Assembly: GCA_027485795.1 (NCBI GenBank)
Contig: JAIXQK010000105.1
Span: 1 to 64,000, forward strand
DNA length: 64,000 nucleotides
Origin: Oxalobacteraceae bacterium
GTDB lineage: Bacteria > Pseudomonadota > Gammaproteobacteria > Burkholderiales > Burkholderiaceae_D
Reading direction: 5' to 3'
This document shows, piece by piece, positions 35,862-55,180 of the stretch. Made by a program: the position numbers and the translations under genes. The notes beneath the pieces were generated by a model that was not told the DNA's origin, did not search any database, and saw only the letters and a program-made list of their open reading frames with translations. Positions within the stretch are counted from its first letter, which is position 1; each line of letters begins with the position of its first letter.

Positions 35862-35890
35862 AGAACTTTCGTCTTAGACACGCTACAATC
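35862..35890 (+). promoter_or_regulatory. Putative ECF-type T3SS promoter upstream of the STAS gene (variant)
   Basis: AGAAC (35862-35866), 16 bases, CTACAATC (35883-35890). It matches the GGAAC-N16-NNAC pattern of the other boxes except for the first base, and lies about 30 bp before the STAS start. Weakest member of the set. Confidence 0.45.
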
Positions 35891-35918
35891 CCGGAAACAA
35901 TGAAAATTCTTTCTTTGC

Positions 35919-36281
35919 ATGCACATACAATCTGAATCGCATGGCACCCTCTTCGTTGTACGACCCGAGGGTGATATCAGTAACGCGGCGGCGACAGCAC
36001 TCGATGAACTGCTCGAGGCAGCCATTGATGATGGCGCGCGACTGATGGTATTTGACTGCACCGGGCTGTCATATATTTCCAGTGATGGTTTGCGGGTATT
36101 GCTGAAGACACTGCGCCGCTTGCGTGATACCGACGGTCGGGCGGTACTGGCTGCAACGGGTGACAAGGTTCGCAGTGTTCTCGAGGCGAGCGGCCTGATG
36201 GCACTGATTGAAGAATTCGATTCTCCTGAAGCTGCGGTGGCTGCACTGACTGGCGGGCACGGCCAGCCGAACAGCCACTGA
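35919..36281 (+). CDS. STAS-domain anti-sigma factor antagonist (BtrV-like)
   Basis: A 120-aa SpoIIAA/RsbV-type protein: RPEGDISNAAATALDELL near the N terminus and the phosphorylatable serine motif FDCTGLSYISSDGLRVLL with Ser54/Ser55. In Bordetella, BtrV with the kinase BtrW and phosphatase BtrU forms a partner switch that controls T3S expression and secretion. This gene sits alone between sctD and sctV; no BtrW or BtrU homologue is in the window, so they would have to be elsewhere. A regulatory role for this T3SS is inference from position. Confidence 0.85.
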   Translation: MHIQSESHGTLFVVRPEGDISNAAATALDELLEAAIDDGARLMVFDCTGLSYISSDGLRVLLKTLRRLRDTDGRAVLAATGDKVRSVLEASGLMALIEEFDSPEAAVAALTGGHGQPNSH

Positions 36282-36324
36282 TGACAGCGATCGTCCCGAA
36301 CAGCATAGTCGCTACTTGTACAGT

Positions 36325-38427
36325 TCAAAGCTCGACCCTTGCAAGCGGTTGGATATTGACCTCCGGCGTTAACTCCTGATACGACAGTACCGGTAACTCA
36401 TACAAATCTTGCTCGATCATCTTGCGCAAATAGCGTCGTATATCCATGGAAGTCAGAAGCACGGGTTTTTGCATCGAGCGGCTCAGATCACCGACAGTTG
36501 CCTTGATACTGTCGAGCAGCTGTCGCGAGGTCCCTGGATCGAGCGCCAAATAGGATCCACCGGACGTCTGGCGAACCGCTCCTCGAACCGTATCTTCAAC
36601 CGAGGGCGCGAGCAGATAGGCTGGCAGAAGATTATTGCCGGCTGAGTATCTGAAACTGATATGCCTTTTCAGGGCAACGCGTACATACTCGGTCAGCATC
36701 ACGGAATCCTTCTCCTTTTGTCCCCATTCGATTAACGCCTCCATCACCGCCCGCAAGTTACGCACTGATACACCCTCGCCAACCAGTCGTTGCAGTATTT
36801 CGGCAATTTTATGTATCGGCATGACGCGTTGGACTTCTTTGGCCAACTCGGGAAGTCGATTTTCCATATCGGTAAGTATGGTACGCGTCTCTTGAATGCC
36901 GATGAATTCCGCTGCGTGTTTCTTGAGTACTAAAGCAATGTGGTAAGAAAGCAGCGAGTTGGGCTCTAGAAAAGGAACGCCGGCATTAATAAGTAGTTGC
37001 TTCAACTCAACCCCGGCCCACAATGTCGATAGCCCCGGCAGAAAGGGGTCGCCCGTCTCAAAAGGAATGGCGAGTGATCTCAGATTCTCTGGTGCCTCTT
37101 TCACAAATAAATGGCGAGGACGCAATCTGCCTTGCGATACTGGAATCTCAGAAACCATAATGACGTAGGTTTCTTCGCTCATACTCTGGTTGAAACGCAG
37201 CGCGATACCCGGAAAAACTAGCCCCAAGTCCTCAAACAAGGCGCGCCGTACTTTGGCGAGTTCTTCGTTCAGGAACTCAGTCGAAAAAGCCTTTTCAAGC
37301 CCCGGATGCAGGTCGACCAATAAAGGGACGGCAGGGGAGAATCCATCGGCATCAGAGGCTTTTTGGCCTTCTTCCTTATCACCAGAGGCAATAGCCGGGA
37401 TACTGCTGACTTTACCGGTCTTGGGATCAATTACCGTGCGCTCGCCTTTGAAGAAGACGTAGCCGACGATGCCGACCACTACAGCCAGCACCAGAAAGGT
37501 CGCCGTCGGCATGCCGGGTATCGCAGCAAAACCCAGCATCACGACTGAGCCAATCAGAAAAGCTTTGGGCTGAGCCAAAAGCTGTGCCCCAATATCACTA
37601 CCCACATTAGATGGGCCGCCATCAGCGCCAGTCACCCGCGTGACAATCATGCCGGCACAGATAGAGACAAACAGCGCAGGAATCTGCGCGATCAAACCAT
37701 CGCCAATCGTGAGGATAGAATAAATTCTGATCGAATCTGAGGCGGTCAAGCCCTTCATCAATACGCCAATCAGAACCCCGCCCAAAAGATTGACTGCAAC
37801 GATAATCAAGCCGGCGATCGCATCGCCCTTGACGAATTTCATCGCGCCATCCATCGCGCCGTACAGCTGACTCTCCTTTGACACGATGTCGCGTCGACGT
37901 CGTGCTTCATTCATATCGATAGTGCCGGCACGAAGGTCGCCATCGATAGACATCTGCTTACCCGGCATCGCATCAAGCGAAAAACGCGCTGCGACCTCTG
38001 CAACACGCTCAGACCCCTTGGTGATCACGACAAACTGAACGATCGTCAGGATAAGAAAAACCACCAGACCCACCACAAGATTACCGCCCACTACAAAGTT
38101 ACCAAAGGTATAAATAATATGACCAGCATCGCCATTCAACAGAATCAGTCGTGTGGTTGCAATACCAATGGCCAACCTGAATAAGGTGGTGACCAACAAA
38201 ACCGATGGGAAGGATGAGAATGCAAGCGGCGTAGGAAGATACATCGCCACCATCAGCAGAATCGCTGACAGACACATATTCGTGGCGATCAGCGCATCAA
38301 TCAGCCAGGTAGGTAGCGGCAAGATCATCATAAAAATAATGCAGACGATCAAAGTTGCCAGCACCAGGTCGTTACGCTTAACGACCTTTTGCAAAAAGGA
38401 TTGAATATGCGCTGTGATTGCGTCCAT
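36325..38427 (-). CDS. sctV: T3SS export gate protein SctV
   Basis: FHIPEP-family (FlhA/LcrD/InvA) export gate, 700 aa. About seven or eight N-terminal membrane segments (residues 15-330) include the conserved loop EARRRRDIVSKESQLYGAMDGAMKFVKGDA; the cytoplasmic domain (about 360-700) forms the nonameric ring that receives chaperone-effector complexes. The ATG at 38427 overlaps the sctY stop (TGATGG); a GTG one codon earlier is possible. Ends close to the STAS gene on the opposite strand. Confidence 0.97.
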   Translation of the reverse strand: MDAITAHIQSFLQKVVKRNDLVLATLIVCIIFMMILPLPTWLIDALIATNMCLSAILLMVAMYLPTPLAFSSFPSVLLVTTLFRLAIGIATTRLILLNGDAGHIIYTFGNFVVGGNLVVGLVVFLILTIVQFVVITKGSERVAEVAARFSLDAMPGKQMSIDGDLRAGTIDMNEARRRRDIVSKESQLYGAMDGAMKFVKGDAIAGLIIVAVNLLGGVLIGVLMKGLTASDSIRIYSILTIGDGLIAQIPALFVSICAGMIVTRVTGADGGPSNVGSDIGAQLLAQPKAFLIGSVVMLGFAAIPGMPTATFLVLAVVVGIVGYVFFKGERTVIDPKTGKVSSIPAIASGDKEEGQKASDADGFSPAVPLLVDLHPGLEKAFSTEFLNEELAKVRRALFEDLGLVFPGIALRFNQSMSEETYVIMVSEIPVSQGRLRPRHLFVKEAPENLRSLAIPFETGDPFLPGLSTLWAGVELKQLLINAGVPFLEPNSLLSYHIALVLKKHAAEFIGIQETRTILTDMENRLPELAKEVQRVMPIHKIAEILQRLVGEGVSVRNLRAVMEALIEWGQKEKDSVMLTEYVRVALKRHISFRYSAGNNLLPAYLLAPSVEDTVRGAVRQTSGGSYLALDPGTSRQLLDSIKATVGDLSRSMQKPVLLTSMDIRRYLRKMIEQDLYELPVLSYQELTPEVNIQPLARVEL

Positions 38428-38840
38428 CACGTCGTCACCTGGCGGTCAAATTCGCGGCGAAGCCTGATAAAAAGGCGGGTGGAACGCGCTGCCTCGGACG
38501 TGCGTCCAAGACCAGACAGCGCCTGACTCTGTAGCCAGTAAAAACAAGGATCACGTAGAAGGCTAGCGGGGTCGGCCGCGTCTTCAGGTTCGATCTGGAT
38601 CGATTCCAACACGGCGTATGCGGCTTGAGGATCGCCGAAGCGCAGCCAGGCAAGTGCAAGCGACAGCGCGATCTTATGATCAGCCGGTGCAAGAACGCGA
38701 AGCGCATCAAACAGCGTCACTGCTTCCGCAGATTTCCCATGCTGCAGAAGCAAAAACCCAATCACTTTTAGAACGTCTACGTCAGCAGTCACTGGCGGCG
38801 TGGCGAGATGAGTCTCGCTGAAAACGACTGAATGGGGCAT
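38427..38840 (-). CDS. sctY: T3SS TPR chaperone SctY (YscY-like)
   Basis: A 137-aa TPR-type helical protein from the ATG at 38840, preceded by AAGGGTGAT; an in-frame start further upstream at 38894 is unlikely. TPR-like pairs such as VIGFLLLQHGKSAEAVTLFDAL and LALAWLRFGDPQAAYAVLES are visible. In Ysc-family systems YscY binds YscX and the pair contacts SctV. The gene lies directly between sctX and sctV with overlapping or abutting ends, as in yscX-yscY-lcrD. Confidence 0.85.
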   Translation of the reverse strand: MPHSVVFSETHLATPPVTADVDVLKVIGFLLLQHGKSAEAVTLFDALRVLAPADHKIALSLALAWLRFGDPQAAYAVLESIQIEPEDAADPASLLRDPCFYWLQSQALSGLGRTSEAARSTRLFIRLRREFDRQVTT

Positions 38841-38841
38841 A

Positions 38842-39258
38842 TCACCCTTGTAAGAGTGCTGAGGAATACATCTGAGCAAGTCGGGAAAGGGCATCCCTCT
38901 GAGTTAGCAGATTGGCTAATCTGCCAAATTTCCGAGCATCAGGATGTCGTCGCAGTGCAAGCACCTGAAGCTCATCTTGCCATGCGGAAAGTGCGTCACG
39001 AAATTGGCTAGGTGAAAAAATGATTGGATTAACAGCAGACGGGCGCAGTTGCTCAATGACATAGTCGGCGATCGAGGAGAGCGGGAAAAGCAAATCTAGC
39101 TGCAGCCGGTCTGGCGAGTCAGCTGAAACCAGAGAAAACTGGTTGGGCAGTAGTGCCTCTCTGTTGGAGAGATGGGATATTCCAACAAGACCCTCAAAAA
39201 CATTCGACTCATCACCAAGCTCTTTCGAAGCAAGCCGAGTGATCGCAATCTTATCCAT
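38842..39258 (-). CDS. sctX: T3SS early-secreted protein SctX (YscX-like)
   Basis: A 138-aa protein with no membrane segment. The C-terminal half (FRDALSAWQDELQVLALRRH, then LANLLTQRDALSRLAQMYSSALL) matches by pattern the C terminus of YscX, including the LYP/LFP motif at about residue 58. YscX is an export substrate needed for secretion of early substrates. It is the first gene of the sctX-sctY-sctV operon; a GGAAC-N16-CAAC box lies 43-67 bp upstream. Confidence 0.8.
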   Translation of the reverse strand: MDKIAITRLASKELGDESNVFEGLVGISHLSNREALLPNQFSLVSADSPDRLQLDLLFPLSSIADYVIEQLRPSAVNPIIFSPSQFRDALSAWQDELQVLALRRHPDARKFGRLANLLTQRDALSRLAQMYSSALLQG

Positions 39259-39295
39259 CAGAAATAATCCCGAAATAGTTGATCGCTAGGAATCC

Positions 39296-39325
39296 AATCA
39301 GTTGCGAACGGCAGACAAATGTTCC
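39296..39325 (-). promoter_or_regulatory. Putative ECF-type promoter of sctX-sctY-sctV
   Basis: On the minus strand GGAAC (39325-39321), 16 bases, CAACTGATT (39304-39296), about 40 bp before the sctX start. It is arranged back to back with the box for the filament operon (39348-39377). Confidence 0.6.
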
Positions 39326-39347
39326 AAATAACCGACAAATCAGAGCT

Positions 39348-39377
39348 GGAACTGATGAAACAGCAAGGTTACATAGC
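39348..39377 (+). promoter_or_regulatory. Putative ECF-type promoter of the filament/translocator operon
   Basis: GGAAC (39348-39352), 16 bases, TTACATAGC (39369-39377), about 69 bp before the start at 39446. The downstream half is identical to that of the box upstream of sctO (55172-55180), although the spacers differ. It would drive filament, chaperone and translocator genes through sctL. Confidence 0.7.
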
Positions 39378-39445
39378 GCATGACGGCAAGAAACCATGAG
39401 CTGCTTTCCGGATAAGCATGCCGTAAAAAAGTGAGGAAGTTTTCT

Positions 39446-40048
39446 ATGATGAATCAGATCGACCTTGAGGCATTACGAAATAACTACGACTCAAGAAAAG
39501 GGCCACAATCAGTAGACGAGTGGCTATATCTCGGGGGGAATTCAACCAATGTATTGAATAACCTTGCTATCGCAAATGCGAGATTGGCTAATGCGATAGC
39601 GAAGTCTATAAACAATCAAAGAAACCTGGTCGAAGAAGTGGCGAACATCCTTGAGGTAGTCGCTAACTTAAAAACAGATATAGACGCCTTCAAGCCAGCA
39701 AATCCTGATTTTGGCCAAACTTCCAAATTAGGAAAAACGATCGAGGAGGCACGATCCCTCGTTCAGCGTTTAAAGGCTCAAGTCGAATTACCCCAAGCCC
39801 AAAAAGAAAAAATAGAGACAAGCTTGAATAAAAACGAAATACCTGAACTCGACAATAAGGACTACAACATTTTAAGCACGGTTTTGATGACCAGAACTGA
39901 GACGCTTACAACCATATCCCATCAGGAATCATTACGTTTACAAACCTTGACCACTCGTTATACACAGGGCAACGACCAAGCGGGTACCGTGCAACAGAAA
40001 GATGCTCAAAGCAAAGACAGGGCAAGTGCAAATCTACGCGGCGCATAA
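39446..40048 (+). CDS. Putative T3SS tip/filament protein (Bsp22-like position)
   Basis: A 200-aa hydrophilic, helical, Asn/Gln-rich protein without membrane segments. ATG at 39446 follows GAGGAAG at good spacing; an upstream GTG at 39431 is not favoured. Coiled-coil potential is high at about 40-70 and 85-120. In Bordetella the equivalent place, just before the LcrH-type chaperone and translocators, is held by Bsp22, a secreted filament protein of similar size. I cannot confirm homology by eye; the role is inferred from position, size and composition. Start of the translocator operon with a GGAAC box. Confidence 0.6.
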   Translation: MMNQIDLEALRNNYDSRKGPQSVDEWLYLGGNSTNVLNNLAIANARLANAIAKSINNQRNLVEEVANILEVVANLKTDIDAFKPANPDFGQTSKLGKTIEEARSLVQRLKAQVELPQAQKEKIETSLNKNEIPELDNKDYNILSTVLMTRTETLTTISHQESLRLQTLTTRYTQGNDQAGTVQQKDAQSKDRASANLRGA

Positions 40049-40059
40049 GGAATAAGCCA

Positions 40060-40530
40060 ATGCTTGATACTTTCAAATCCGAACAAGTCAGAAAAATATC
40101 GAAAGATCTATTGGAAAAGCTCGTAGGTCAGCCGGCGGATTTGGAAGCTATGGTGGATGTTGTAAGCGGAATTGAAAGTGGCAAGATTATCGGCCAAGGA
40201 TTTTCGTTGACTGAGTCTGAATTAGATGGCGTGATGGGATTGGCATCTATGCATTACCAGTCAGGTCGATATGAGGATGCGGCACGGTTGTATTCATTTG
40301 TGGCCTTGATGAATCACCTTGACATTCGGGCTTTCAAAGGGGCTGCTATGTGTCTACAGAAGCTAGGTTTTCATGCGGAAGCACTGCAATGTCTCGGCGT
40401 TGCACTCCTGCAAGCGCCTGATAACCAAGAATTAGCCCAAATGGCATCTGAAAGTTTCGTACTCACTGGGGATACCGAGAAAGCACAAGACATTATCGAA
40501 CGCTTAAAAACAGCAGGTGGTTACCAATGA
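40060..40530 (+). CDS. Translocator chaperone, SycD/LcrH family
   Basis: A 156-aa class II T3S chaperone with three TPR repeats (YQSGRYEDAARLYSFVALMN, GAAMCLQKLGFHAEALQCLG and the final EKAQDIIERLK). Such chaperones hold the hydrophobic translocators in the cytoplasm. It overlaps the start of the first translocator gene (ATGA), and corresponds to BcrH1/LcrH/SycD by position. Confidence 0.9.
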   Translation: MLDTFKSEQVRKISKDLLEKLVGQPADLEAMVDVVSGIESGKIIGQGFSLTESELDGVMGLASMHYQSGRYEDAARLYSFVALMNHLDIRAFKGAAMCLQKLGFHAEALQCLGVALLQAPDNQELAQMASESFVLTGDTEKAQDIIERLKTAGGYQ

Positions 40531-41753
40531 ATGAAATCAAAGGAGCTCCGGCAGGGGCAGGGCAGCCTGTTCCCGCCGTTGTAACGCCAGATGCTCTACA
40601 GCGACCAAATCCGGCGGGCGCGCAACCATCTCCACCGCTGGACCAAGGCGTTCAGGTTTTGAAATATTCTCAGGATGGAGATCGACTATTTGGCCAGCCA
40701 CCCTATCGCCTACCCCCAGGGGACCGATTGATAACGATGGATCCGGCGGTTCTGATTGCGATGGTTAATGATGTTTTCAGCAAGCTGGATGAAAAGCAGC
40801 TTGCTGCATTCTCCAGTCAATTAGAAAAAGCACAACCGAAATATCAACAAATTCTAGACAGCCGAATTCAGACGATTGAGAAACAATTTCAAAAGCAAAA
40901 AGAAGCCAAGGAAACCGAGCGGAAAAATCAGATCGCGGCAGACGTTCAGTTAGGCCTTGGGGTTGCGATGACAGTTTTCGGCATTATCGCAAGTATTCTC
41001 TCTGCGGGTGCATTAAGCGGGCTCATGGTTGCCGGCCTCGCAGTTGGTGCAGCAATGACTACGGTTGATGTGGTTAACCGTGGCTTGAAAGCCGGCGAGG
41101 TTAAATACAATGATCCGCTCGATAAAACAGGAGCGAAAAAAAACCAACTCGATATCTCTATCGGGGGCTTGGTTAAGATGGCGGTAGAGGCCTCGGCTGC
41201 AAACAACACATTTGACTACCCTCCCGAAATAGTCAAAGGTGGTAAGGCGGCGATGGACAAATACCGAAATGAAGTCATTATGGGTGTGACTATCTTCCTC
41301 AGCATTGCAATCGCCGCCGGGAGTGTTGCCATGGGTGCAGGTGGAATCGCGCAGCTTAAAAATGCCGCAAAGGCAGGTAAAGATGTAGCAGGGGCAGTGA
41401 AGGATACAGCCAGTAATGCTTCAAAATTTGCACAATTCGCTGAAGCGAATGCGTCAAGAATTCAATTAATTTCTCAAGTTGCGGATGTCGGGGGTGACGT
41501 AATCAATGCATCTGCCTCGATCTATCAAGGCGCAAACACTGTTGTCATGGCTGATACGACATTTGATATGAAAATGGCTGAGGCGCAGGTGAATCGACTT
41601 GATGCCTATGCGGATGCAGAGGCAGCTAATATACAAAGAATAAGAGAAGCCATGCGTAATTCCTCCAGCAGCGTAAATCAGACAAAGCAGATGTTAGCAG
41701 ATACTACATCAATGCTGAACAAAGCAAATTCAAATTTAATCAATATGTCCTGA
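40527..41753 (+). CDS. sctE: T3SS major translocator SctE (YopB/BopB-like)
   Basis: A 408-aa pore-forming translocator. Two hydrophobic helical segments (about 140-178, LGLGVAMTVFGIIASILSAG, and 249-275, VTIFLSIAIAAGSVAM) are the hallmark of YopB/IpaB/SctE proteins; the N-terminal region (1-70) is Pro/Gln-rich and disordered, and the C terminus is a long amphipathic helix. It would insert with SctB in the host membrane. The gene order (SctE before SctB) is the reverse of bopD-bopB as I recall it for Bordetella and like yopB-yopD. Confidence 0.85.
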   Translation: MNEIKGAPAGAGQPVPAVVTPDALQRPNPAGAQPSPPLDQGVQVLKYSQDGDRLFGQPPYRLPPGDRLITMDPAVLIAMVNDVFSKLDEKQLAAFSSQLEKAQPKYQQILDSRIQTIEKQFQKQKEAKETERKNQIAADVQLGLGVAMTVFGIIASILSAGALSGLMVAGLAVGAAMTTVDVVNRGLKAGEVKYNDPLDKTGAKKNQLDISIGGLVKMAVEASAANNTFDYPPEIVKGGKAAMDKYRNEVIMGVTIFLSIAIAAGSVAMGAGGIAQLKNAAKAGKDVAGAVKDTASNASKFAQFAEANASRIQLISQVADVGGDVINASASIYQGANTVVMADTTFDMKMAEAQVNRLDAYADAEAANIQRIREAMRNSSSSVNQTKQMLADTTSMLNKANSNLINMS

Positions 41754-41777
41754 ATCAGAGTCATTAGGAGTTAGCAA

Positions 41778-42992
41778 ATGAAACTAGAGCAAGTTTCCAC
41801 CGACCTTAGTTCGCGTCTTGTTGATATCGCGCAAGTTGCGCATGATTCATCGCTTTCAACAGCAGAGCGTAGTGAAAAATTAAATCAGATGAAAGGAGTG
41901 ACACTAGAAAAAATAGCGTCTGAGTCCGGAGAGGTAAGCATTCTTGCGCAATCAATTTTAGACAACATTCGGCATATTGTCGAAAACGAAGATTGGGCAA
42001 AATTACCGCCACCAGTGAACTTATCATCGAACCTAGCTGCTGCAGCTTCGGTTACATCTGAGCTCAATACGCTTGCGACAAAAGTACTGCCGGATATTCA
42101 AGCCATGCAGCGCGTTTACGTAGAAACCATGCTTAAGCTGTTGCAGACCGTTTCTAATTCCGAAGTACTTTCAATGAATCATCAGTGGGTGGCAGCAGAA
42201 ACTCAATTCGCGAAGTCGAAACTCGCTGCAGAGCAGGAGAAGACTAGCGGTATTGTTTCTGGAGCGGTTGGAATTGCTACTGCTACGGCTTCGATTGCGG
42301 CAAAAGTCGTTGTGACTGGATTAACAAAGAAGAAATTTGATCGTAACTCACCGAGTTCTGAAGAGAATGCGGAATTGAAAAGAACCAAAGATCTGCATCT
42401 TGAAACGGGGACGGAGCTGAAGAAAGAAAAGGCTAACCTCGACAAACTTAAGCTTGAACTCGCCGAGAATGAAAAACAGATTCGCAATCTCAAAGATCAG
42501 CAACAAAACAATAATCTAAGTCAATCCGCTTCAAAAAAATTAGCTGAAGAAATTTCTGTTCGCGAAGCTGTCGCTAAGGATAGTAGGTCAAAGATTGCAA
42601 TTGCCGAAAATAAATTAATAAATATAAAAGCAGATCATGAGCTTGCATCAGCCGGCTTATCGGCGATTAATTCAAGTATGGATTTTAAGGCTGGATCCGC
42701 AAACAGATACGCCCAAGAAATGAGGGCTTATAACGATATAACGGATCAAGGAGCGAACTTAGTACAGAACGCTACAAAGGTGGGCACAAGCTTCGTCGAC
42801 GCTTCTGCAAAAGAACACAGGATTGAATCAGAAAAAGCATCGTTCATGACTAACTTTGCTAATTCGGTTCAGCAAACCGCCCAGAAAGAGAAAAGAGACC
42901 TTTTAGATGGTATTAATTCGTCGGGCTCAATGCTGACAGCGGTTATTCAAGGTAATGATAGTTCACATACTCATATCATTAGATCGGCATGA
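41778..42992 (+). CDS. sctB: T3SS minor translocator SctB (YopD/BopD-like)
   Basis: A 404-aa protein with one hydrophobic segment (about 155-180, GIVSGAVGIATATASIAAKV), as in YopD/SctB, followed by a long coiled-coil region (about 200-290, K/E/L-rich) and an amphipathic C terminus. The C-terminal half is AT-rich. It has AGGAG nine bases before the ATG. Its last codons overlap the next chaperone gene (ATGA). The coiled coil is longer than I would expect for YopD, so part of it may be lineage-specific. Confidence 0.78.
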   Translation: MKLEQVSTDLSSRLVDIAQVAHDSSLSTAERSEKLNQMKGVTLEKIASESGEVSILAQSILDNIRHIVENEDWAKLPPPVNLSSNLAAAASVTSELNTLATKVLPDIQAMQRVYVETMLKLLQTVSNSEVLSMNHQWVAAETQFAKSKLAAEQEKTSGIVSGAVGIATATASIAAKVVVTGLTKKKFDRNSPSSEENAELKRTKDLHLETGTELKKEKANLDKLKLELAENEKQIRNLKDQQQNNNLSQSASKKLAEEISVREAVAKDSRSKIAIAENKLINIKADHELASAGLSAINSSMDFKAGSANRYAQEMRAYNDITDQGANLVQNATKVGTSFVDASAKEHRIESEKASFMTNFANSVQQTAQKEKRDLLDGINSSGSMLTAVIQGNDSSHTHIIRSA

Positions 42993-43501
42993 AAAGTTCT
43001 GCTCCAAGTCAATTACCCGACATAAATTCAGAATTCGATATGGTGTTGTTTCGTGAGGTCATCCGCGATTTACATACGACATTTTCACAGTATGAATTTC
43101 ATAAAAGGCTGAGCGATGAACAAGCCGAGGTGGTGTATTTTGTAGGTCATACCTTGTTTACCCAGGGAAAATTTGAAAAAGCTTTGAATGTCTTTAAGCT
43201 CATTCTGCTGTATCGACCTTTTGACCCCAGGAACTTAGAGGCTTACGCAACCACCTTAAAACGGCTTGGGCGATTTGAGGAGGCGATACCGGTATATGTT
43301 TCTGCGCTTATCTTTGGGGAGCTTTCTAGTCCGTCACCGTCGATTCATATTGCAGAATGTTTAGCAGCGCTAGGACGTTCGGATGAGTCCGAGAAGATGC
43401 TACGTCCGATACTGGATTTGACTGAGTTGAATTCTGCATATGCTGGCGTTCGTACCAGAGCTGAGAATTTGCTCTCCGTTCTCAAGGCGAGCGCTCGATG
43501 A
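42989..43501 (+). CDS. TPR translocator chaperone, SycD-like (BcrH2 position)
   Basis: A second class II-type chaperone, 170 aa, with tandem TPR units: VYFVGHTLFTQGKFEKALNVF, LEAYATTLKRLGRFEEAIPVY and IAECLAALGRSDESEKML. It follows both translocator genes with overlapping ends, the place held by bcrH2 in Bordetella. Two SycD-like chaperones in one locus suggest one for each translocator or a filament/translocator split. Confidence 0.85.
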   Translation: MKSSAPSQLPDINSEFDMVLFREVIRDLHTTFSQYEFHKRLSDEQAEVVYFVGHTLFTQGKFEKALNVFKLILLYRPFDPRNLEAYATTLKRLGRFEEAIPVYVSALIFGELSSPSPSIHIAECLAALGRSDESEKMLRPILDLTELNSAYAGVRTRAENLLSVLKASAR

Positions 43502-43995: not shown

Positions 43996-44043
43996 GTCGA
44001 TGCCGCTCGTAAGAGGCAGATCTGCGCATAGTGGGAGTGCACG

Positions 44044-46674: not shown

Positions 46675-46704
46675 GGAACACGGTGCCGATTTGTGTCACC
46701 TACC
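46675..46704 (+). promoter_or_regulatory. Putative ECF-type promoter of the chaperone operon
   Basis: GGAAC (46675-46679), 16 bases, TCACCTACC (46696-46704), 25 bp before the ATG at 46729. It would give the CesT-type chaperone genes their own transcript, apart from the long sctI-L operon. Confidence 0.6.
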
Positions 46705-46728
46705 GACGCGACTCATCCGGAGAGATCA

Positions 46729-47690: not shown

Positions 47691-47711
47691 TAAATTTCCC
47701 TGGAGATTAAA

Positions 47712-48395
47712 ATGTCGACTCCTGTATCAAATACAACCTTATCGAATAGATCGACTACAGACAATATTGATGGAACAGCAGATCCGACTACAGTAAAAAA
47801 AGTCGATGGTAGTGTTAAGCTTGGAAAAAAAATCGATGGGGCAAAGGGAAAAGAAATCAAAAATGATTGGCTAACATCCATTTCTAATGTCAATAAACAG
47901 TTGACGGAAATCTCTAAAGAATTGGATGAAATTTCTAAAGAAATCGAAAAAATGTCTAAACGATTTGATGAAATTAAAAAAAATGCTGCTTCAAAATCAA
48001 GCACCAAAAATACGACAACTTCTTCATCTAGTAGTGACCCACTGGTCGCAAGTTCTCGAACTGACCAAGTCGACGGAGATAGTGCAGAAGAATCTGAAGA
48101 TGATGTCAAAAATTATTTAGACGATGCTTTAAAGAGCATCCAAAAAGCCTCTACAGCTTCTAAATCAATAGCAAATAATTTTAAAGAAAAAGTTCAGACC
48201 AAAGTCGAAAAAGCAGTAACTGCTTTAAATAATTTTGATAGTAATGAATCTTCTGCAAAAGATAAAGAATTAAAAAAAATGAAAAATAACTTAAACCAGA
48301 GATTACAAGCAATATTGCACGGCCTCGAGGAGATTGATTTGTCTCCAGGTAAAACTTATCTAGAACACGATCTGACAGTTGAGAAAAGCATGTAA
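47712..48395 (+). CDS. Ser/Thr-rich coiled-coil protein, candidate T3S substrate
   Basis: A 227-aa protein I do not recognise. The first 35 residues are rich in Ser, Thr and Asn, typical of T3S signals. A heptad-patterned coiled coil (about 50-92, K/E/I/L-rich) is followed by a Ser-rich linker (SSTKNTTTSSSSS) and a second helical region (about 130-205). The codons are much more AT-rich than those of the flanking genes. It lies 22 bp after two overlapping CesT-type chaperone genes, the usual place for their client. No known effector domain is seen. Confidence 0.6.
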   Translation: MSTPVSNTTLSNRSTTDNIDGTADPTTVKKVDGSVKLGKKIDGAKGKEIKNDWLTSISNVNKQLTEISKELDEISKEIEKMSKRFDEIKKNAASKSSTKNTTTSSSSSDPLVASSRTDQVDGDSAEESEDDVKNYLDDALKSIQKASTASKSIANNFKEKVQTKVEKAVTALNNFDSNESSAKDKELKKMKNNLNQRLQAILHGLEEIDLSPGKTYLEHDLTVEKSM

Positions 48396-48621
48396 AATTC
48401 TAGCTGCCGAGAGCATTCGGCAATTCAACACATATTGTAGTTGTAATTGATTACCGTTGAGATCGTCTCTGATCGTCAAGGTAAGGATTTTCGGCGCTAC
48501 ACCAAACTATGCCTTGCGCTTAGTTCTGAATAGCGCTTACAGTCATAGCTTTTCTCATCACTCGTTTATTGAATTTCAATTGTTCTTAGGCCGATAATCA
48601 AGGTCGATATGTCTCCGGAAT
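48396..48621. other. Intergenic region with a weak hairpin, no gene seen
   Basis: The gap lies between the coiled-coil gene (plus) and the sycN-like gene (minus), which converge. TGCCGA (48405-48410) and TCGGCA (48417-48422) form a 6-bp stem with a 6-base loop but have no T-run, so a terminator is only possible. The rest is unremarkable. Confidence 0.5.
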
Positions 48622-49005
48622 TTACAGAGCATTTGAAACTTGGTTTGAAATTTCACCTAAATCATCTAAGGCTTTTTCCATATCGCTGAGCATGAATGCC
48701 CGTTCGGGTATCCTGAACGCGAGGATGAGTTCTCGCTGGTCGTAAGCAATCTGTAATGGCCAACGCCGTGCAAATCGGTAGTGGGTCAATTTAAGTGCGT
48801 TACGATATTGTTGTGCGGTTAGGTAGTTCGCGGGAATTGTTCGATAAATGATGACGTCCGAAGCTGCCTCGGATGCCTTGTAAAAGAGACTGATACTTGA
48901 CAGATCGCCTGTGCCCAGTCTTATCGCTCCGTCATGGTCAAATGAAAGTTCAGGGATCCCAATGCGTCTCCCAAATTCTGCAACGACTTGTTCTACCCAG
49001 TTCAT
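48622..49005 (-). CDS. SycN-like chaperone of SctW
   Basis: A 127-aa class I-type chaperone starting MNWVEQVVAEFGRRIGIPEL, close in pattern to Yersinia SycN (MSWIEPIISHFCQDLGVP). In Yersinia SycN with YscB binds YopN. Its ATG overlaps the tyeA-like stop (ATGA). The order sctW-tyeA-sycN equals yopN-tyeA-sycN. A YscB partner is not identified, unless one of the CesT-type proteins takes that part. Confidence 0.78.
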   Translation of the reverse strand: MNWVEQVVAEFGRRIGIPELSFDHDGAIRLGTGDLSSISLFYKASEAASDVIIYRTIPANYLTAQQYRNALKLTHYRFARRWPLQIAYDQRELILAFRIPERAFMLSDMEKALDDLGEISNQVSNAL

Positions 49006-49340
49006 ACGCCACCTGCTATTTTTGCATCGGCTGAACCTTCAGCCAGTTTGGGTACTTCAGCATCTGATTCCTCGCGCAAAATTGCATTATCCAAGGCAGC
49101 TTGAGCGGCATCTATGATTGCGGATCGTGAATGATCGTCTTGATAAACCTTAAAAGGCAGCTCCCGCAGGATTTGCTGTAATCCCGTAAGAAAGTAGACT
49201 TCAGGTGCACCGGGCGGGATCTTCAAGTTATGGATCATTCGGTCGAAATGGGTGGGAGATACCCAGCCATCGGACAGAATTTTTATGATCGCTTGAAGGA
49301 GTTCCTGCTCATTAATCTCAGACGGCAGCGGGCTGGCCAT
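49002..49340 (-). CDS. TyeA-like T3SS gatekeeper subunit
   Basis: A 112-aa helical protein with the TyeA pattern: ILSDGWVSPTHFDRMIHNLKI, then YFLTGLQQILRELPFKVYQDD and a last helix IDAAQAALDNAILREE. TyeA completes the YopN gatekeeper. It overlaps the 3' end of sctW by 23 bp in another frame, so a YopN-TyeA frameshift fusion, as known in Yersinia, is conceivable. The last 25 residues are an Ala/Gly tail. Confidence 0.85.
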   Translation of the reverse strand: MASPLPSEINEQELLQAIIKILSDGWVSPTHFDRMIHNLKIPPGAPEVYFLTGLQQILRELPFKVYQDDHSRSAIIDAAQAALDNAILREESDAEVPKLAEGSADAKIAGGV

Positions 49341-50409
49341 AGATTCTTTGTAAGCCTTTGAGGAGTGAGTCTATTTTTTCAATCAAGGTTGTAGAGATAT
49401 GCATGAATGAGAGCTCAGACAACAAACTCTCGAGTTTGATTTTGTCGGTTGATCTTTCCTCTTGATCAAGCTGCAATTCATCCGCGAGCGTTTGTTTCAT
49501 AAGAGGAATGATATGTCTAAGCTCTGCTGTAGTGTGCCGTTTAATCAAAGCTGTAAATGTGTGCAAGAAATTACCGGCATGTTGTAGTGCGCCAGAATAA
49601 CTTTCAATAAACCGCTCTGGGTCGCCTGTCTCAAATCCTTTTTCGATACTGTTTCTGGCAAGCTTGATTCTGCTACCGTCGTCAATTTCAAGCTGAAGCA
49701 GCGCATCGTCAAGATGTTCGCGTAATGCTTTTAGCTGGTTCTGGTCTAAGTCCGGCAATCCTTGAGCATCGCGTAGCTTGTTCTTGAGTGCCTCAGGGTT
49801 GAACCTCAGGGTCTTCATCATGGCGTGTAATTCATCAGGATCCTCCGGTAAGCCCTCAGTCTCAGCCAGTAGGGCTTTCATCTTGGCAGGATCGTCCCCG
49901 GCTTCCTGTAGTTGCTGGGCCAAGACCTCTAGCTTGGCATCAGCCCAATTTCCCGGTGTCATTTTGGCGATGAAGTCACCTTGATTGCCTTGAAGCGCGC
50001 TTGATAGTTTATTTAGCGCAACATAATGCTGTAGGAGGTTGTTTAGACTGCCGTCCTGCTTTGGCATCGATTGTTGACCCAAGAAATGCTTCAGGTAGCT
50101 CTGTGCCAGCTTGGTAGTTTCTATATCACCACCGAAGACCTTCGCAAGCTTCCCGAGTGTGTCTGCAGAGATAGGCAGACTTCGGGCGTCAAGACTTAAG
50201 GTGCGCTCCCCCAGAGTCTTTCGATCAGTCGGTGCGTCTAGACCAGACCGCTGGCGGTACTCGGTTTTTCGGATTTCACTGTCGATATCTTTTTCCTGCC
50301 GAACGCGCACCGTCAGGCCGTTCCATGTGCCGCTAGCTAGGTGATCTTTGGCCTCCCTGAGTGTTTGACTGCCAAAGGCCCTTCTTGCGTTGATGACTTG
50401 TTCAACCAT
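49318..50409 (-). CDS. sctW: T3SS gatekeeper SctW (YopN/InvE/BopN-like)
   Basis: A 363-aa all-helical gatekeeper that blocks effector export until contact and orders translocator before effector secretion. The N-terminal 80 residues are polar; the HrpJ/InvE domain follows at about 100-310 (LAQSYLKHFLGQQ, FETGDPERFIESYSGALQHAGNF). A separate tyeA-like gene follows, so this is the short, YopN-type version. The ATG at 50409 lies about 50 bp downstream of a GGAAC-N16-ATAC box. Confidence 0.85.
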   Translation of the reverse strand: MVEQVINARRAFGSQTLREAKDHLASGTWNGLTVRVRQEKDIDSEIRKTEYRQRSGLDAPTDRKTLGERTLSLDARSLPISADTLGKLAKVFGGDIETTKLAQSYLKHFLGQQSMPKQDGSLNNLLQHYVALNKLSSALQGNQGDFIAKMTPGNWADAKLEVLAQQLQEAGDDPAKMKALLAETEGLPEDPDELHAMMKTLRFNPEALKNKLRDAQGLPDLDQNQLKALREHLDDALLQLEIDDGSRIKLARNSIEKGFETGDPERFIESYSGALQHAGNFLHTFTALIKRHTTAELRHIIPLMKQTLADELQLDQEERSTDKIKLESLLSELSFMHISTTLIEKIDSLLKGLQRIYGQPAAV

Positions 50410-50455
50410 TTTTATATCCTTGCGCTAGGGTAGCTATTCCTTTACTGCACTTGCC

Positions 50456-50485
50456 AATAAGTATCTGGGGAGGCTGTCTTGTTCC
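50456..50485 (-). promoter_or_regulatory. Putative ECF-type promoter of sctW-tyeA-sycN
   Basis: On the minus strand GGAAC (50485-50481), 16 bases, ATACTTATT (50464-50456), 47 bp before the sctW start. The bases after the -10-like core resemble those of the sctX box (NNACTNATT). Confidence 0.6.
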
Positions 50486-50503
50486 CGCATCACAAAGGGC
50501 CTA

Positions 50504-50533
50504 GGAACTCGAAATTCTCAAATGTTACCGAGG
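50504..50533 (+). promoter_or_regulatory. Putative ECF-type promoter of the 50582-sctN operon
   Basis: GGAAC (50504-50508), 16 bases, TTACCGAGG (50525-50533), 49 bp before the TTG at 50582. The box would leave the upstream ATG at 50522 outside the transcript, which supports the TTG start. It is divergent from the sctW box 18 bp to the left. Confidence 0.62.
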
Positions 50534-50581
50534 TTTGGCTACCATAAATTCCGCGTCGAAGCATCGTTTAGGAGAGCTAGC

Positions 50582-50893
50582 TTGGCAGTCCCAGATGAAC
50601 AGACCGTCATGAATAACGCGAAGCATGCCGTAATTGCGGCGCGTAAAGCAGTCGATGAGGCACGTCGTGCTATTGAAAATGCTGAGTATTTTTTTAGAGA
50701 AGTTGGTATCGATTCAGAGTCTCCGGAACTGGCACTAGCTCATCTCGTTGACCCTACTAAGCGCGAAGAAGTCGACGGTATCGTCGCGGCTGCCCTGCAG
50801 GAGATAGACCGGCAAGCTGAAGAAGCGATTCGAGGAGCGCGAGGGCAGCATCTGAATCCTGCCATCAAGCGTGCACCACGTTCGCTGATATGA
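50582..50893 (+). CDS. Small helical T3SS-locus protein, unrecognised
   Basis: A 103-aa protein from TTG at 50582, which has AGGAG seven bases upstream; an ATG at 50522 is in frame but lies inside the promoter box. Two Ala/Glu/Arg-rich helices (about 8-40 and 60-92) flank a short loop. It is charged, has no signal peptide or membrane segment, and I do not recognise a family. Size and place ahead of two putative secreted proteins would suit a chaperone or regulator. First gene of the 50582-sctN operon. Confidence 0.65.
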   Translation: MAVPDEQTVMNNAKHAVIAARKAVDEARRAIENAEYFFREVGIDSESPELALAHLVDPTKREEVDGIVAAALQEIDRQAEEAIRGARGQHLNPAIKRAPRSLI

Positions 50894-50932
50894 GTTTTTG
50901 AAATACAGAAATAATTTTGTTGGGGGGGTATT

Positions 50933-52003
50933 GTGTCAATAAGTCAAACGCCTTCGTTGTCTAATTTATCGACAACATCAATTACTGTCCCGAGTTCAGC
51001 CAGTTTTATTGGAGGAAGTGAAGATGCTTTGTTGATGCAATCAGTGGTATTGATATCAACTACAGATCGACTACGTGACAATATTCGCCGAAATGTTAGC
51101 GCCGCTGGTGTACTAGTAGAGAATTTCAACACACTGGCAAGCAGGTTAAGCAATTTGGGTAAGGTTATAAAAAACGACTGGACGCCTGTCACTTACGACG
51201 CGCTGAAAGCCTCTGATAAAGATGCGGTTTCGCTACGAAGTCTATTTGCGAAAGATGGCCCAAATTTGGGTGACTCACTTAGCCAGAGCACCAATGTGCT
51301 TGCCAGATTGGTTGCAGACGGTATTTCCCTGAACGCGCCCAAACGGACACCCGTAATGGAGGAACACTTCACTGCGGTCGGTGGCAAGATTGATTTCAGC
51401 ACCCGTCCAGGAAAAGCCAGTGTTGACTGGCGGTCTGATCAGGACCTGGTAAGCATTGGGCCAGTCACCACGGCGGGTAGTTTTGCTGGAAGTTTTGTAA
51501 AAACTTCAGAGGTGCGTGATGCCAAAGGAAGCTTGATTTCAGCGACACGCTACACAGTATTTGTTGACTATCCAAACCTTCGGCCGAGCAAATCCGATCT
51601 TGACACGTCATTCTTAGGCTATCTTCAAAGACTTTCGCCTATCTTGTCGGACTTAGAGTCGCTGTTTTCAAATATTTCCGAAGATACAGATTTGCTTGAT
51701 GAGCGTATTCGTCAAGAAATAAACAAGTCGAATTTGGATCAGCAGGATTATTTGAAAAATCAGCAGCAAAAGTTCACAAACCTGTTAGAGATAAACCGAC
51801 TACTTAAGATTTATCGTTCAGAAATCCTGAATATGAGTTTTATGCGGTCACAAAATTCCCCCGATACGATTACAGACCTTTTGCCGTTACAAAAAAATGA
51901 AACTGCGGCAGAGCTCGACAAGATTTCCTTGCTTCGCCCAGTGGTTGATCAATTGTATCGGTATGCAAACGATCAGGCCGATGATGTATTGAACAGCAAA
52001 TAA
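50933..52003 (+). CDS. Putative secreted T3SS-locus protein, unrecognised (356 aa)
   Basis: Starts with GTG at 50933 after a G-rich Shine-Dalgarno. The first 30 residues are Ser/Thr-rich with few charges, typical of a T3S signal. An N-terminal helical part (about 32-75, with LRDNIRRNVSAAGVLVENF) leads to a beta-rich middle (about 140-215) and a C-terminal helical part (about 220-300). There is no Sec signal or membrane segment. The helix-beta-helix plan recalls tip or gatekeeper-like secreted proteins, but I see no family match. The gene is AT-rich like others of the island. Confidence 0.6.
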   Translation: MSISQTPSLSNLSTTSITVPSSASFIGGSEDALLMQSVVLISTTDRLRDNIRRNVSAAGVLVENFNTLASRLSNLGKVIKNDWTPVTYDALKASDKDAVSLRSLFAKDGPNLGDSLSQSTNVLARLVADGISLNAPKRTPVMEEHFTAVGGKIDFSTRPGKASVDWRSDQDLVSIGPVTTAGSFAGSFVKTSEVRDAKGSLISATRYTVFVDYPNLRPSKSDLDTSFLGYLQRLSPILSDLESLFSNISEDTDLLDERIRQEINKSNLDQQDYLKNQQQKFTNLLEINRLLKIYRSEILNMSFMRSQNSPDTITDLLPLQKNETAAELDKISLLRPVVDQLYRYANDQADDVLNSK

Positions 52004-52020
52004 GTATCGGAGTTTATTCA

Positions 52021-53379
52021 ATGCCATCTAATACGACATCTATCCTTATTTCTGAAGGATTTTCACAACGATCTCCATGGCTAATTGAGGAGCTTGATAC
52101 CAATTTAAAGAACTATACAGTGGCATCTTTTGCCTCGTCGGGCGCAAATCAAAGTACCGCCATGAAGACTCAGACTCAAGTGCTAGTAGAACAAACCAAT
52201 CAGCTTGAAAAAATGCAGATATTTGCTGAAAAAATTAGCTTGGGAAGTCCTACAGCAGTTGTTGTTGATGCCTCGGGCAGAGTGCTGGTCAGCAATGCAA
52301 GACAATTCTCGGATTTGATTGGACGTTCGGTGGAAAGCTTGGCCAAGTCAGACTCAGAGGTTGATCGATTGATTGAATTGACAAATAACCTCAGAAATAG
52401 CGTACCAGCAGTAAATCTTGGTGGGCAAGCGTATGTATCAGTAACTGTAAACACCGGAACGCCACCAGTCGATCGGATAATCGCTGTCCCGCTGAGAGTT
52501 TGGGGTAGTGATCTTTCCGCGATATCTGGTACGTCTTTACAAGCGTTTACCTGCTACGCGTACAAAGCAGCTAATGGAACAATTACCTACCGAATTTTGG
52601 ATGAAGATAAACAAAATTTAACAGTCACCAAGGTTGAGGCACTCACGAACCCCGATCCTAGTCGGGCTTATGACGCTTTTCGCATTAATACGGGTACTTC
52701 CGATTCGCCTAGCTACAAGGTTTTTGCTCCACAAGATATCTCTAAGACTTTCCCTACGAGCGCCTCCCAGGAGATACTTTATCGGAATGTCTTTACCGGA
52801 GAACTTAGGCTCGTAGGGCCTTCCAAAGCAAATATTGCATTCACGAATACTCAGGGTTTTGTCGTGCCTGCTGACCAAAATGAACTGAACTACTGGTTCG
52901 GGCAGTCCGGTGCAGCTCGACTAATCGCGACAAATACCCAGTTGCTAGCCGATGGTGTCAAGATGCCTATCCCACCCGATACATTCCAATGGAAGTACAA
53001 AGACTTTACAGGAGGTGGTTTTGGAAACTATCCGCCAAAAAAAGGATTGCCGTCTGATGTCACCCTTGCGGTCGGTAGCCTTGTGGAGGACTCTAACGTC
53101 GGAAAAATCTACTTCATCAGCGGAAAGCTAAATAATGTAAATACATTCGTCGAGGTTGAAAAAGTCGGCGATCCATTTGTTTTACGGTTATCAAATGAAA
53201 ATCTTTTGAATATCAGGGGTCAATATACGGAGCGAATCGCGCAAATGACTCAACGTACTACCGAGCAACAATTATTTTTAAATTCACTTTTACAAAGGCT
53301 TAATTTGTACTTCGATGCGGCTTCGAATGTCCTGAAAGCGTTTTCAGATCTCAACAGCAAGTTATCTAATACCCGCTGA
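52021..53379 (+). CDS. Putative secreted T3SS-locus protein, unrecognised (452 aa)
   Basis: ATG at 52021 with GGAG nine bases upstream. The N terminus is Ser/Thr-rich and uncharged, a T3S-signal pattern. A helical stretch (about 45-75) is followed by a long beta-rich middle (about 75-395), with a segment [18 protein letters not shown] that vaguely recalls a sensor-domain strand pair, and a C-terminal amphipathic helix pair (about 400-450) resembling the polymerising coil of tip, needle or EspA-type proteins. No enzymatic motif is seen. It abuts sctN, so it is made with core export parts. Confidence 0.6.
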
Positions 53380-53390
53380 CTGAAGTGACG

Positions 53391-54734
53391 ATGGGTTCAA
53401 CCGGAAGTCCACATCACTTTCAGTATATTACTGACATGCTTCAGTCTGCGTTAGCGCAGGCGAAGGTCGCACAGGTAAAAGGCCGGGTAGTACAAGTGAC
53501 CGGCACCATTATTCGAGCAGTCATTCCCTCCGTAAAAATTGGCGAGATCTGCATTCTTCGTAGTCCGAGCGATGATATCGGGATGAAGGCGGAGGTAGTC
53601 GGTTTTTCCCTCGGATCCGCGCTGCTGATGCCGATGGGAGATATGCAAGGCATCTCGTCCGACACCGAAGTAATTCCCACCGGTCAGGTTCATCTGGTTC
53701 CCGTTGGGAATACGCTTCTCGGCCGGGTGCTAGATGGAATGGGCGACCCTATCGATATCTCCACCCGAGGCCCGTTGAACGTTACACGCTATTACCCGGT
53801 GCTCACTGGCGCTCCAGATCCGCTGCGCCGACGAATCATTAAACAGCCACTATCTCTGGGCATTCGCGCGCTCGATGGGCTGCTGACGTGTGGAGAGGGT
53901 CAGCGTCTGGGAGTATTCGCTGCGGCGGGTGGGGGTAAATCTACTTTGATGGCGATGCTGGTAAAGGGCGCAGATGTTGATGTGACTGTAGTGGCGCTGA
54001 TTGGTGAGCGGGGGCGTGAGGTGCGCGAGTTCCTGGAGCATGAGCTCGGGGAGGAGGGAATGCAGCGTGCGGTGATCATTTGTGCAACGTCTGATAAATC
54101 TTCTATGGAGCGCTCAAAGGCTGCCTATGTGGCGACCGCTATCGCAGAGTATTTCCGCGATCAGGGAAAAAGGGTGCTGTTTCTGATGGACTCAGTAACG
54201 CGATTTGCTCGCGCTCAGCGAGAAATTGGTCTGGCTGCTGGCGAGCCTCCGACGCGACGTGGATTTCCGCCCAGCGTTTTCGCTACATTACCGAGGTTGA
54301 TGGAGCGCGTAGGGATGGGGCACAAGGGTTCGATCACCGCACTCTACACCGTATTGGTAGAGGGTGACGATATGACTGAGCCAATTGCGGACGAAACTCG
54401 CTCTATTCTGGATGGGCACATAATTTTGTCGAGAAAATTGGCCTCGGCAAACCATTACCCGGCCATTGATATTCTTTCCTCGGTGTCGCGGGTAATGAAT
54501 ATGGTCGTATCAGACGATCATAAAGCGATTGCGGGTCGTTTTCGGGAGTTAATGGCAAAGTATTACGAAGTAGAACTTTTGGTCAAAATTGGTGAATACA
54601 AACGAGGTGCGGATCCATTGGCGGATCAGGCTATTGATCGGATTGAAAAACTTCGTACTTTCTTGCGGCAGAGGACCGATGAACGGATTAGTTTCGAAGA
54701 TACCCTCTCGCAAATGAAAGCAGTGGTAGCCTGA
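53391..54734 (+). CDS. sctN: T3SS ATPase SctN
   Basis: Hexameric ATPase of the FliI/YscN family that unfolds substrates and strips chaperones. Walker [10 protein letters not shown] is near residue 178, Walker [13 protein letters not shown] follows, and the ATPase signature [22 protein letters not shown] is present. An N-terminal V/F-ATPase-like domain and C-terminal helical domain complete 447 aa. ATG at 53391 is used; a GTG six bases upstream is an alternative. It sits 11 bp after the 452-aa gene, so it depends on the upstream operon or a close promoter. Confidence 0.97.
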
Positions 54735-54760
54735 CCGAAATATTCTGCTCCGTTATCAAC

Positions 54761-54856
54761 GTGGCCCTATCGATCAAACGAACTGAATTATTAGTTTATT
54801 TATTAGCGTTTAATGGCGACCTGGTACCAGTCAACGTACTGGCCCAGCATACATGA
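54761..54856 (+). pseudogene. Possible remnant of an OmpR/HilA-type winged-helix regulator
   Basis: The frame from GTG at 54761 encodes KRTELLVYLLAFNGDLVPVN and ends VLAQHT plus stop. This matches the pattern of the first helices of OmpR/PhoB or SARP-type winged-helix domains (LT..E..LL..L..N.G..V....L). About 30 codons before the stop exist, so it cannot be an intact regulator. T3SS loci often carry such regulators (HilA type), so decay of one is possible; chance similarity is also possible. Confidence 0.3.
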
Positions 54857-55150
54857 TTGCCTTAAGTCCGCTATTTTCCTCATTTGAAATTCACGAAAAT
54901 TCGCTTGGCCTGCTGCGTGAGCTGATATTGAAGTAAAGGCATACTCGAAGCTCAGAAGTGGCTAAACGCTTCGCAGTACAAGGCGTGACAATACAGCGCC
55001 ACTAAGGAACGGCTTACCACTCCAGCGGGTAGTGATGACCTTGGTGAATCTCCAAAAAAGTCATCAGACTTACCCGCGTCGCTTTGCTCGCGAAATGGTT
55101 TTTCTTGAGGGCATTGGTTCATTTCCGTTGCAAGTGTTGTAAATAAGTCA

Positions 55151-55180
55151 GGAACCCTGACTAGTGGTGCGTTACATAGC
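55151..55180 (+). promoter_or_regulatory. Putative ECF-type promoter of sctO and downstream genes
   Basis: GGAAC (55151-55155), 16 bases, TTACATAGC (55172-55180), 77 bp before the sctO start. Its downstream half is identical to that of the filament-operon box at 39348-39377. It splits the sctN-C gene run into two transcription units. Confidence 0.7.

What the first reader, a model, noticed from the sequence alone, without database searches (positions are those of the whole stretch)
35862..55180. A shared GGAAC-N16-NNAC element marks seven T3SS transcription units
Seven boxes with invariant 16-base spacing lie 25-80 bp upstream of starts and in the right orientation: 35862 (AGAAC variant, STAS gene), 39325 minus (sctX), 39348 plus (filament operon), 46675 plus (chaperones), 50485 minus (sctW), 50504 plus (50582 gene), 55151 plus (sctO). 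Two of them, 16 kb apart, share an identical TTACATAGC downstream half with unrelated spacers. By simple arithmetic, GGAAC-N16-NNAC is expected about once per 16 kb per strand by chance, so six GGAAC copies each in front of an operon is not random. The element resembles the HrpL-type box (GGAAC-N16-CCAC) with a different -10, fitting an ECF sigma factor such as Bordetella BtrS.
Basis: partly seen in the sequence, partly recalled or inferred. Interest (0 to 1): 0.85.

Follow-up and report, generated by a model that had tools for sequence, protein, structure and literature searches.

The report
Sigma-factor switch of a secretion machine
Six of the seven proposed DNA boxes share one exact pattern that recurs in front of the same secretion genes in related bacteria, so they are likely the on-switches read by a sigma factor encoded just past the window; many relatives lack most of that secretion machine, with a joint at one exact point inside the same sigma gene.

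Summary
Six of the seven boxes hold up; the STAS one (35862) does not. The sharper form is GGAAC-N15-GNNAC-NNA: 17 matches in the 3.24-Mb genome, 6 in this T3SS. Of the other 11, 7 lie just upstream of ORFs of 150 aa or more, among them a CesT chaperone and two ankyrin-repeat proteins; of 30 control-spacing matches none do. In 11 T3SS stretches the pattern occurs 30 times at spacer 15 and 0-2 times at each other spacer from 8 to 23. An ECF sigma gene ends the cluster 1.65 kb past the window; in five genomes of other genera it lies inside the cluster. I read this as an HrpL/BtrS-like regulon with its own -10 half; that this sigma reads the boxes is inferred.

Unexpected: in 11 of the 18 same-genus genomes with this sigma gene, it is cut exactly after region 2 and joined in frame to the tail of SctV or SctF, the T3SS between being absent. 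The capped protein lists hold 121 such joined proteins. Near-identical N-parts occur both intact and joined. Active excision or old deletion alleles: open.

The parts
39298..39325 (-). box before sctX-sctY-sctV
   Evidence: strict match, 39 nt before ATG 39258; box at the same place in G272, G066 and G097
39348..39375 (+). box before the filament/translocator operon
   Evidence: strict match, 55 nt before GTG 39431 or 70 before ATG 39446; same place in G272, L012 and G066
46675..46702 (+). box before the chaperone pair 46729-47690
   Evidence: strict match, 26 nt before ATG 46729; same gene in G272, L012, L013, G066, G097
50458..50485 (-). box before sctW and the TyeA/CesT-family genes after it
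   Evidence: strict match, 48 nt before ATG 50409; same place in G272, L013 and G097
50504..50531 (+). box before orf50582/50609 and the genes up to sctN
   Evidence: strict match, 50 nt before TTG 50582 or 77 before ATG 50609; same place in G272, L013 and G097
55151..55178 (+). box before sctO and the following operon
   Evidence: strict match, 78 nt before ATG 55257; same place in L013 and G066 and in G189
35862..35889 (+). claimed seventh box before the STAS gene: rejected, likely a sigma-70 promoter
   Evidence: first and last bases deviate; conserved part is [AT]GAACT-N16-TACAAT in 5 of 7 genomes
35919..36281 (+). STAS-domain protein (anti-sigma-antagonist type)
   Evidence: PF01740
36325..38430 (-). 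sctV; its Tyr667 codon (36430-36432) is where related genomes join to the sigma gene
33893..34135 (-). sctF needle gene, alternative partner of the joint (G004)
   Evidence: PF09392, 25.9 bits, below its cut-off of 29.4; joint
33893..62486 (.). T3SS cluster within the window; it continues to the ECF sigma gene at contig position 65650-66381 (-), outside the window

Best explanation
The element is likely a -35/-10 promoter, GGAAC-N15-G(T)(T/C)AC-NNA, predicted to be read by an ECF sigma factor whose gene ends the same type III secretion cluster 1.65 kb past the window. Region 4 of the sigma would bind GGAAC and region 2 the GTYAC-NNA half, so that one protein would switch on apparatus, chaperone and translocator units together with scattered effector-like genes. 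Shown: the pattern, its fixed spacing, its position before the same genes in relatives, its genome-wide distribution, and the sigma gene in or at the end of the cluster. Inferred: that transcription starts there, and that this sigma rather than another reads it.
For: Strict pattern 17 times in the genome, 6 in the T3SS; the same pattern with spacers 16-19 occurs 45 times, none in the T3SS. In 11 T3SS stretches spacer 15 gives 30 matches, 24 of them outside the own genome; each other spacer from 8 to 23 gives 0-2. Same positions before the same genes in relatives. Outside the T3SS 7 of 11 matches front ORFs of at least 150 aa, against 0 of 30 control loci; the eight ORFs looked at include a CesT chaperone and two ankyrin-repeat proteins. 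ECF gene with regions 2 and 4 at the cluster end; its relatives (63-73% identity over the matched piece) follow sctL inside the T3SS of five genomes of other genera.
Against: No transcript data. G055 has the cluster and the ECF but no strict box, only one with spacer 14; G272 has no strict box before sctO. At least two of the 30 matches lie inside sctK (G066, G088). The refined G and A were taken from the own sites, so only the other loci test them. Relatives with a truncated sigma still keep boxes before long ORFs: 15 of 30 loci sampled from 39 matches. The genome has other ECF-type genes (9 region-4 matches, 6 over the cut-off). No box was found near the sigma gene itself.
Confidence: 0.8

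Rival explanations
1. The boxes are read by another ECF of the genome, such as the RpoE-like one on contig C162, because GGAAC is a common -35 of that family (recalled); the cluster's own ECF does something else.
For: RpoE-like paralogue present. Boxes before long ORFs persist in four relatives whose cluster sigma is truncated.
Against: The sigma gene lies in or next to the T3SS in own, G272, G189, G135 and five genomes of other genera; 6 of 17 strict matches in the genome fall in the T3SS.
Confidence: 0.15
2. The boxes are binding sites of an activator with two half-sites, not a sigma promoter.
For: Two conserved half-sites at fixed distance could also suit a dimeric activator.
Against: [quoted passage not shown] I made no search for such an activator.
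Confidence: 0.04
3. Chance: the motif is common and the reader picked sites in front of genes.
For: The loose pattern is reached by 7 of 100 shuffles of the window; 11 strict matches outside the T3SS are about as many as one control spacing gives (45 over four spacings).
Against: 24 matches at spacer 15 against 0-2 at each other spacer in loci not used to build the pattern; orthologous positions.
Confidence: 0.01

Closest known systems
HrpL / hrp-box regulon of Pseudomonas syringae (ECF32)
   Same: ECF-driven T3SS and effector regulon; GGAAC -35; NNA after the -10 half; box GGAACC-N15/16-CCACNNA (passages of PMC6647874; PMC8999054).
   Different: The -10 half here is mostly GTTAC or GTCAC: of 30 strict sites position 22 is T in 23 and position 23 is T in 20 and C in 9, not CCAC. 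The base after GGAAC is C in 15 of 30. Sequence orthology to HrpL not tested.
Bordetella BtrS (BrpL) system
   Same: ECF gene adjoining a T3SS cluster of similar gene content (my reading), a STAS gene beside it, gatekeeper and translocator units among the targets (passages of PMC7498569).
   Different: In Bordetella bscC-bscO and bcrD-bscF depend little on BtrS; here the sctO unit and the unit with sctV have boxes. The secreted regulator gene lies directly upstream of btrS (passages of PMC3372540); here thrC does. No SpoIIE phosphatase found. The passages I saw of PMC7498569, PMC10732220 and PMC3372540 give no BtrS promoter sequence.
Loss of islands by recombination with an empty site (transformation as 'chromosomal curing')
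   Same: A cluster present or absent at a fixed place among near-identical relatives. PMC4774983 and PMC12637031: search listing with abstract start only.
   Different: The empty site here is an in-frame gene joint with one fixed end inside the sigma gene and several partners.

Membership tests
HrpL / hrp-box regulon | ECF sigma with regions 2 and 4 encoded with the T3SS | tested here: met
   PF04542 and PF08281 over cut-off; gene at the cluster end
HrpL / hrp-box regulon | box with -35 GGAAC and NNA after the -10 half at fixed spacing | tested here: met
   30 matches at spacer 15, 0-2 at others
HrpL / hrp-box regulon | -10 half CCAC | tested here: not met
   positions 22-23 are mostly TT or TC; C at position 22 in 3 of 30 and at 23 in 9 of 30; the Motiliproteus locus L014 does have CCAC in both its boxes
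HrpL / hrp-box regulon | sequence membership of ECF32 | not tested
   no ECF32 model in hand; the 25 best NCBIfam models shown pass the cut-off only for the general ECF superfamily model
Bordetella BtrS system | T3SS units driven by an ECF encoded beside the cluster | tested here: inconclusive
   gene and boxes found; which sigma reads them needs an experiment
Bordetella BtrS system | partner-switch set with SpoIIE phosphatase (BtrU), kinase (BtrW) and STAS (BtrV) | tested here: not met
   STAS present; 0 PF07228 matches in a 95%-complete draft; six PF13581 matches in long open frames of 434-762 aa, not examined further
Bordetella BtrS system | secreted anti-sigma gene directly upstream of the sigma gene | tested here: not met
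   the gene upstream is thrC; a secreted anti-sigma elsewhere was not looked for
Bordetella BtrS system | sequence orthology to BtrS | not tested
   no BtrS sequence was fetched

The most novel reading that the evidence does not exclude
The sigma factor and its secretion machine form a DNA-level on/off system: the chromosome is cut at one fixed codon between regions 2 and 4 of the sigma gene and joined to the tail of sctV or sctF. One event removes the region that would read GGAAC together with the T3SS and its boxes, so that populations of one species hold both armed and disarmed cells.
Probability: 0.3. Interest if true: 0.88.

Novelty: new variant of a known kind. Interest (0 to 1): 0.72.

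Why it matters
If right, the box is a ready probe for secreted proteins in uncultured freshwater and related Burkholderiales, as the hrp box was in Pseudomonas; my searches listed no description of such a regulon there. The joint makes a question testable: how and how often bacteria discard a secretion machine, and why one codon of its own regulator is used each time.

Tried and rejected
Rejected: the seventh box (35862), likely a sigma-70 promoter. Not supported: a conserved DNA site at the joint; synonymous codons there vary among 12 intact sigma genes, and in the sites printed only the Tyr codon is common to all partners. No recombinase family was reported for the 20 ORFs scanned with Pfam; the other cluster genes were not scanned. 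The tail of P0237 matched nothing convincing in the loci given. Two searches on precise excision or fusion-type loss of T3SS clusters listed no paper whose title or abstract start describes it; I did not open those papers. The first script for downstream ORFs failed after one row and was redone.

Full report
WHAT IS THERE. The window is contig C178:1-64000 of a 3.24-Mb draft genome in 183 contigs. The named relatives found with SctJ are two Oxalobacteraceae MAGs, a Betaproteobacteria MAG and a Motiliproteus. A T3SS lies between hom and thrC, from sctF at 33893 past the window end to an ECF sigma gene at C178:65650-66381. Several sct names rest on gene order and length as I recall them.

THE BOXES. 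All carry G before NNAC and A three bases after. GGAAC-N15-GNNAC-NNA occurs 17 times in the genome, 6 of them the T3SS boxes. With spacers 16-19 it occurs 45 times, none in the T3SS. The loose form occurs 163 times in the genome and 9 times in the window, three inside genes; 7 of 100 shuffles reach 9.

SPACING AND CONSERVATION. In 11 T3SS stretches (222 kb) the strict pattern at spacer 15 gives 30 matches, 24 outside the own genome; every other spacer from 8 to 23 gives 0-2. Counts by stretch: own 6, G272 5, G189 2 and 0, L013 4, G135 0, G066 6, G097 6, G055 0, G017 0, G088 1. The G135 and second G189 stretches were partial; matches further along the same contigs were listed later. Five more distant loci in hand were left out of that count (G013, G162, G379, G315, L014); the listing shows 1, 0, 3, 2 and 2 strict matches there. 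The boxes sit before the same genes: the sctX/filament pair in G272 and G066 (the filament gene of G066 was not found by tblastn), one side in L012 and in G097; the chaperones in five relatives; the sctW/orf50609 region in G272, L013 and G097; sctO in L013 and G066 and G189. Against: G055 has cluster and ECF but no strict box, one with spacer 14 aside; G272 has none before sctO; at least two matches lie inside sctK (G066, G088).

THE SEVENTH BOX. 35862 deviates in its first and last bases. In 5 of 7 genomes the conserved part is [AT]GAACT-N16-TACAAT. I read it as a housekeeping promoter.

THE WIDER REGULON. Of the 11 strict matches outside the T3SS, 7 have a start codon of an ORF of at least 150 aa 31-114 nt after the first base of the box and no ORF of 150 aa over the site; of the 30 control loci fetched (of 45 matches) none do. 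By Fisher's test this is about 1.5e-5 (my arithmetic). An eighth (L022) precedes a long ORF but lies under another. Pfam on these eight ORFs, four of them cut by the end of the fetched stretch: one CesT chaperone, two ankyrin-repeat proteins, two weak matches under the cut-off, three without a match. That they are secreted is untested. Of the first 30 loci (of 39 matches) in four T3SS-minus relatives, 15 front long ORFs by the same rule; of the first 30 (of 60) in four relatives with an intact sigma gene, 12. Some of these may be promoters of other ECF factors.

THE SIGMA. It has regions 2 and 4. Of the 25 best NCBIfam models only the general ECF superfamily model passes its cut-off. About 70 residues before region 2 are rich in Asp and Glu (sequence). 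In G097, G066, G055, G017 and G088 the best match (63-73% identity) lies right after sctL inside the T3SS. No loose box was found in the 19 kb around the gene.

THE JOINT. Of 21 same-genus genomes 18 hold this gene (G278 matches only through the RpoE-like paralogue, G229 and G266 not at all). Seven are full length: own, G272, G189, G135, G211, G200, G220. T3SS genes adjoin it in the first four; in the last three the contig ends in the neighbouring cluster gene orfP1484. In eight (G178, G145, G167, G122, G255, G249, G236, G047) the gene is cut after region 2 (...MVRNY) and runs on in frame as the last 34 residues of SctV. In G004 it runs on as the end of SctF. In G243 and G156 the sigma contig ends at the joint, and the contig with the SctV tail begins with the same 114 or 121 nt and then shows the joint. 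A break exactly there is what an assembly branch between intact and joined forms would give; that is inference. In own coordinates the joint is SctV Tyr667 and sigma Tyr140 of the 243-residue form. G178 matches own DNA at 96.5% on the SctV side and 94.6% on the sigma side and lacks about 29.5 kb between; it keeps sctF, sctD and STAS at 99, 97 and 95% protein identity. In the joined genomes SctJ and SctV searches gave only flagellar-like matches and the SctV tail; T3SS contigs that were not binned cannot be excluded.

HOW COMMON. The search with the G178 joined protein lists the best 120 of 558; 98 are joined at the same sigma residue (97 to SctV 667, P0201 to SctV 582) and 22 are intact. The search with the sigma N-part lists the best 120 of 413; 26 are new: 23 with the SctF tail, P0237 and P0244 with tails I could not place, and P0224 with the normal linker and then an end. 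So 121 listed proteins have an SctV or SctF tail beginning at that residue; these are capped lists. On a quick tree of 258 N-parts (of 267; 9 short rows dropped) the fewest changes between intact and not intact are 61, against 75-92 in 30 shuffles (49 against 65-82 on 232 rows). Twelve disjoint pairs of SctV-joined and intact N-parts are identical over 110 residues or more, 28 are at least 95% identical. SctF-joined and SctV-joined forms do not pair at 80% or more, so the partner goes with the clade. Near the joint the DNA follows species, not form: G255 joined and G189 intact differ at 3 of 102 positions, own and G178 at 9 of 102 (13 of 14 tails retrieved).

HOW IT MIGHT WORK. (A) Active deletion at the region 2/4 boundary. 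For: one fixed sigma breakpoint with several partners, and DNA that follows species up to the joint. Against: no conserved DNA site, no recombinase seen in the ORFs scanned, the reciprocal joint not examined. (B) A few old deletion alleles kept and spread by homologous recombination. For: clade-specific partners, and lower own-G178 identity in the first two 150-nt windows on the SctV side (0.80, 0.88; these include intergenic DNA) than on the sigma side (0.98, 0.97). Against: it does not explain why different partners share one sigma breakpoint. I put A at 0.3.

COMPARISON. The hrp box is GGAACC-N15/16-CCACNNA (passages of PMC6647874), and substitution of any base of its GGAAC is stated to abolish HrpL function (passages of PMC5263251). 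BtrS drives bscN-bsp22 and bopN-orf2 and little else of the bsc locus (passages of PMC7498569). The system here works like these; membership in either family is not claimed.

Noticed in passing
window 36430-36432 (sctV) and contig position 65962-65964 (sigma gene); L115 10448-10969: In eight same-genus genomes the sigma gene is joined in frame, after region 2, to the last 34 residues of SctV; about 29.5 kb of T3SS is absent between them in G178.
   Followed up: yes
L119 (G004) 5656-6156; P0219-P0243: A second partner of the same sigma breakpoint: the end of the needle protein SctF (G004 and 23 database proteins).
   Followed up: partly
P0237, P0244, P0201: Rarer tails at the same breakpoint: two that I could not place and one at SctV Tyr582.
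   Followed up: partly
L125/L169 (G243) and L126/L170 (G156): Contigs end exactly at the joint with 114 and 121 nt overlap, as if intact and joined forms coexist in the sample.
   Followed up: partly
window 35850-35918: Between sctD and STAS a conserved [AT]GAACT-N16-TACAAT, a sigma-70-like promoter, in 5 of 7 genomes.
   Followed up: yes
L015, L024, L025: Far from the T3SS, boxes stand before a CesT chaperone gene and two ankyrin-repeat genes.
   Followed up: partly
L010 4651-5511 (-): The ECF sigma carries an acidic, poorly conserved N-terminal extension before region 2; function unknown.
   Followed up: no
L010 1484-3619 (+): A 711-aa protein with a GNAT domain adjoins sctC and is conserved in the T3SS clusters of other genera.
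   Followed up: no
window 38001-60000: The T3SS part has lower GC (0.44-0.49) than the first 34 kb of the window (0.52-0.60).
   Followed up: no
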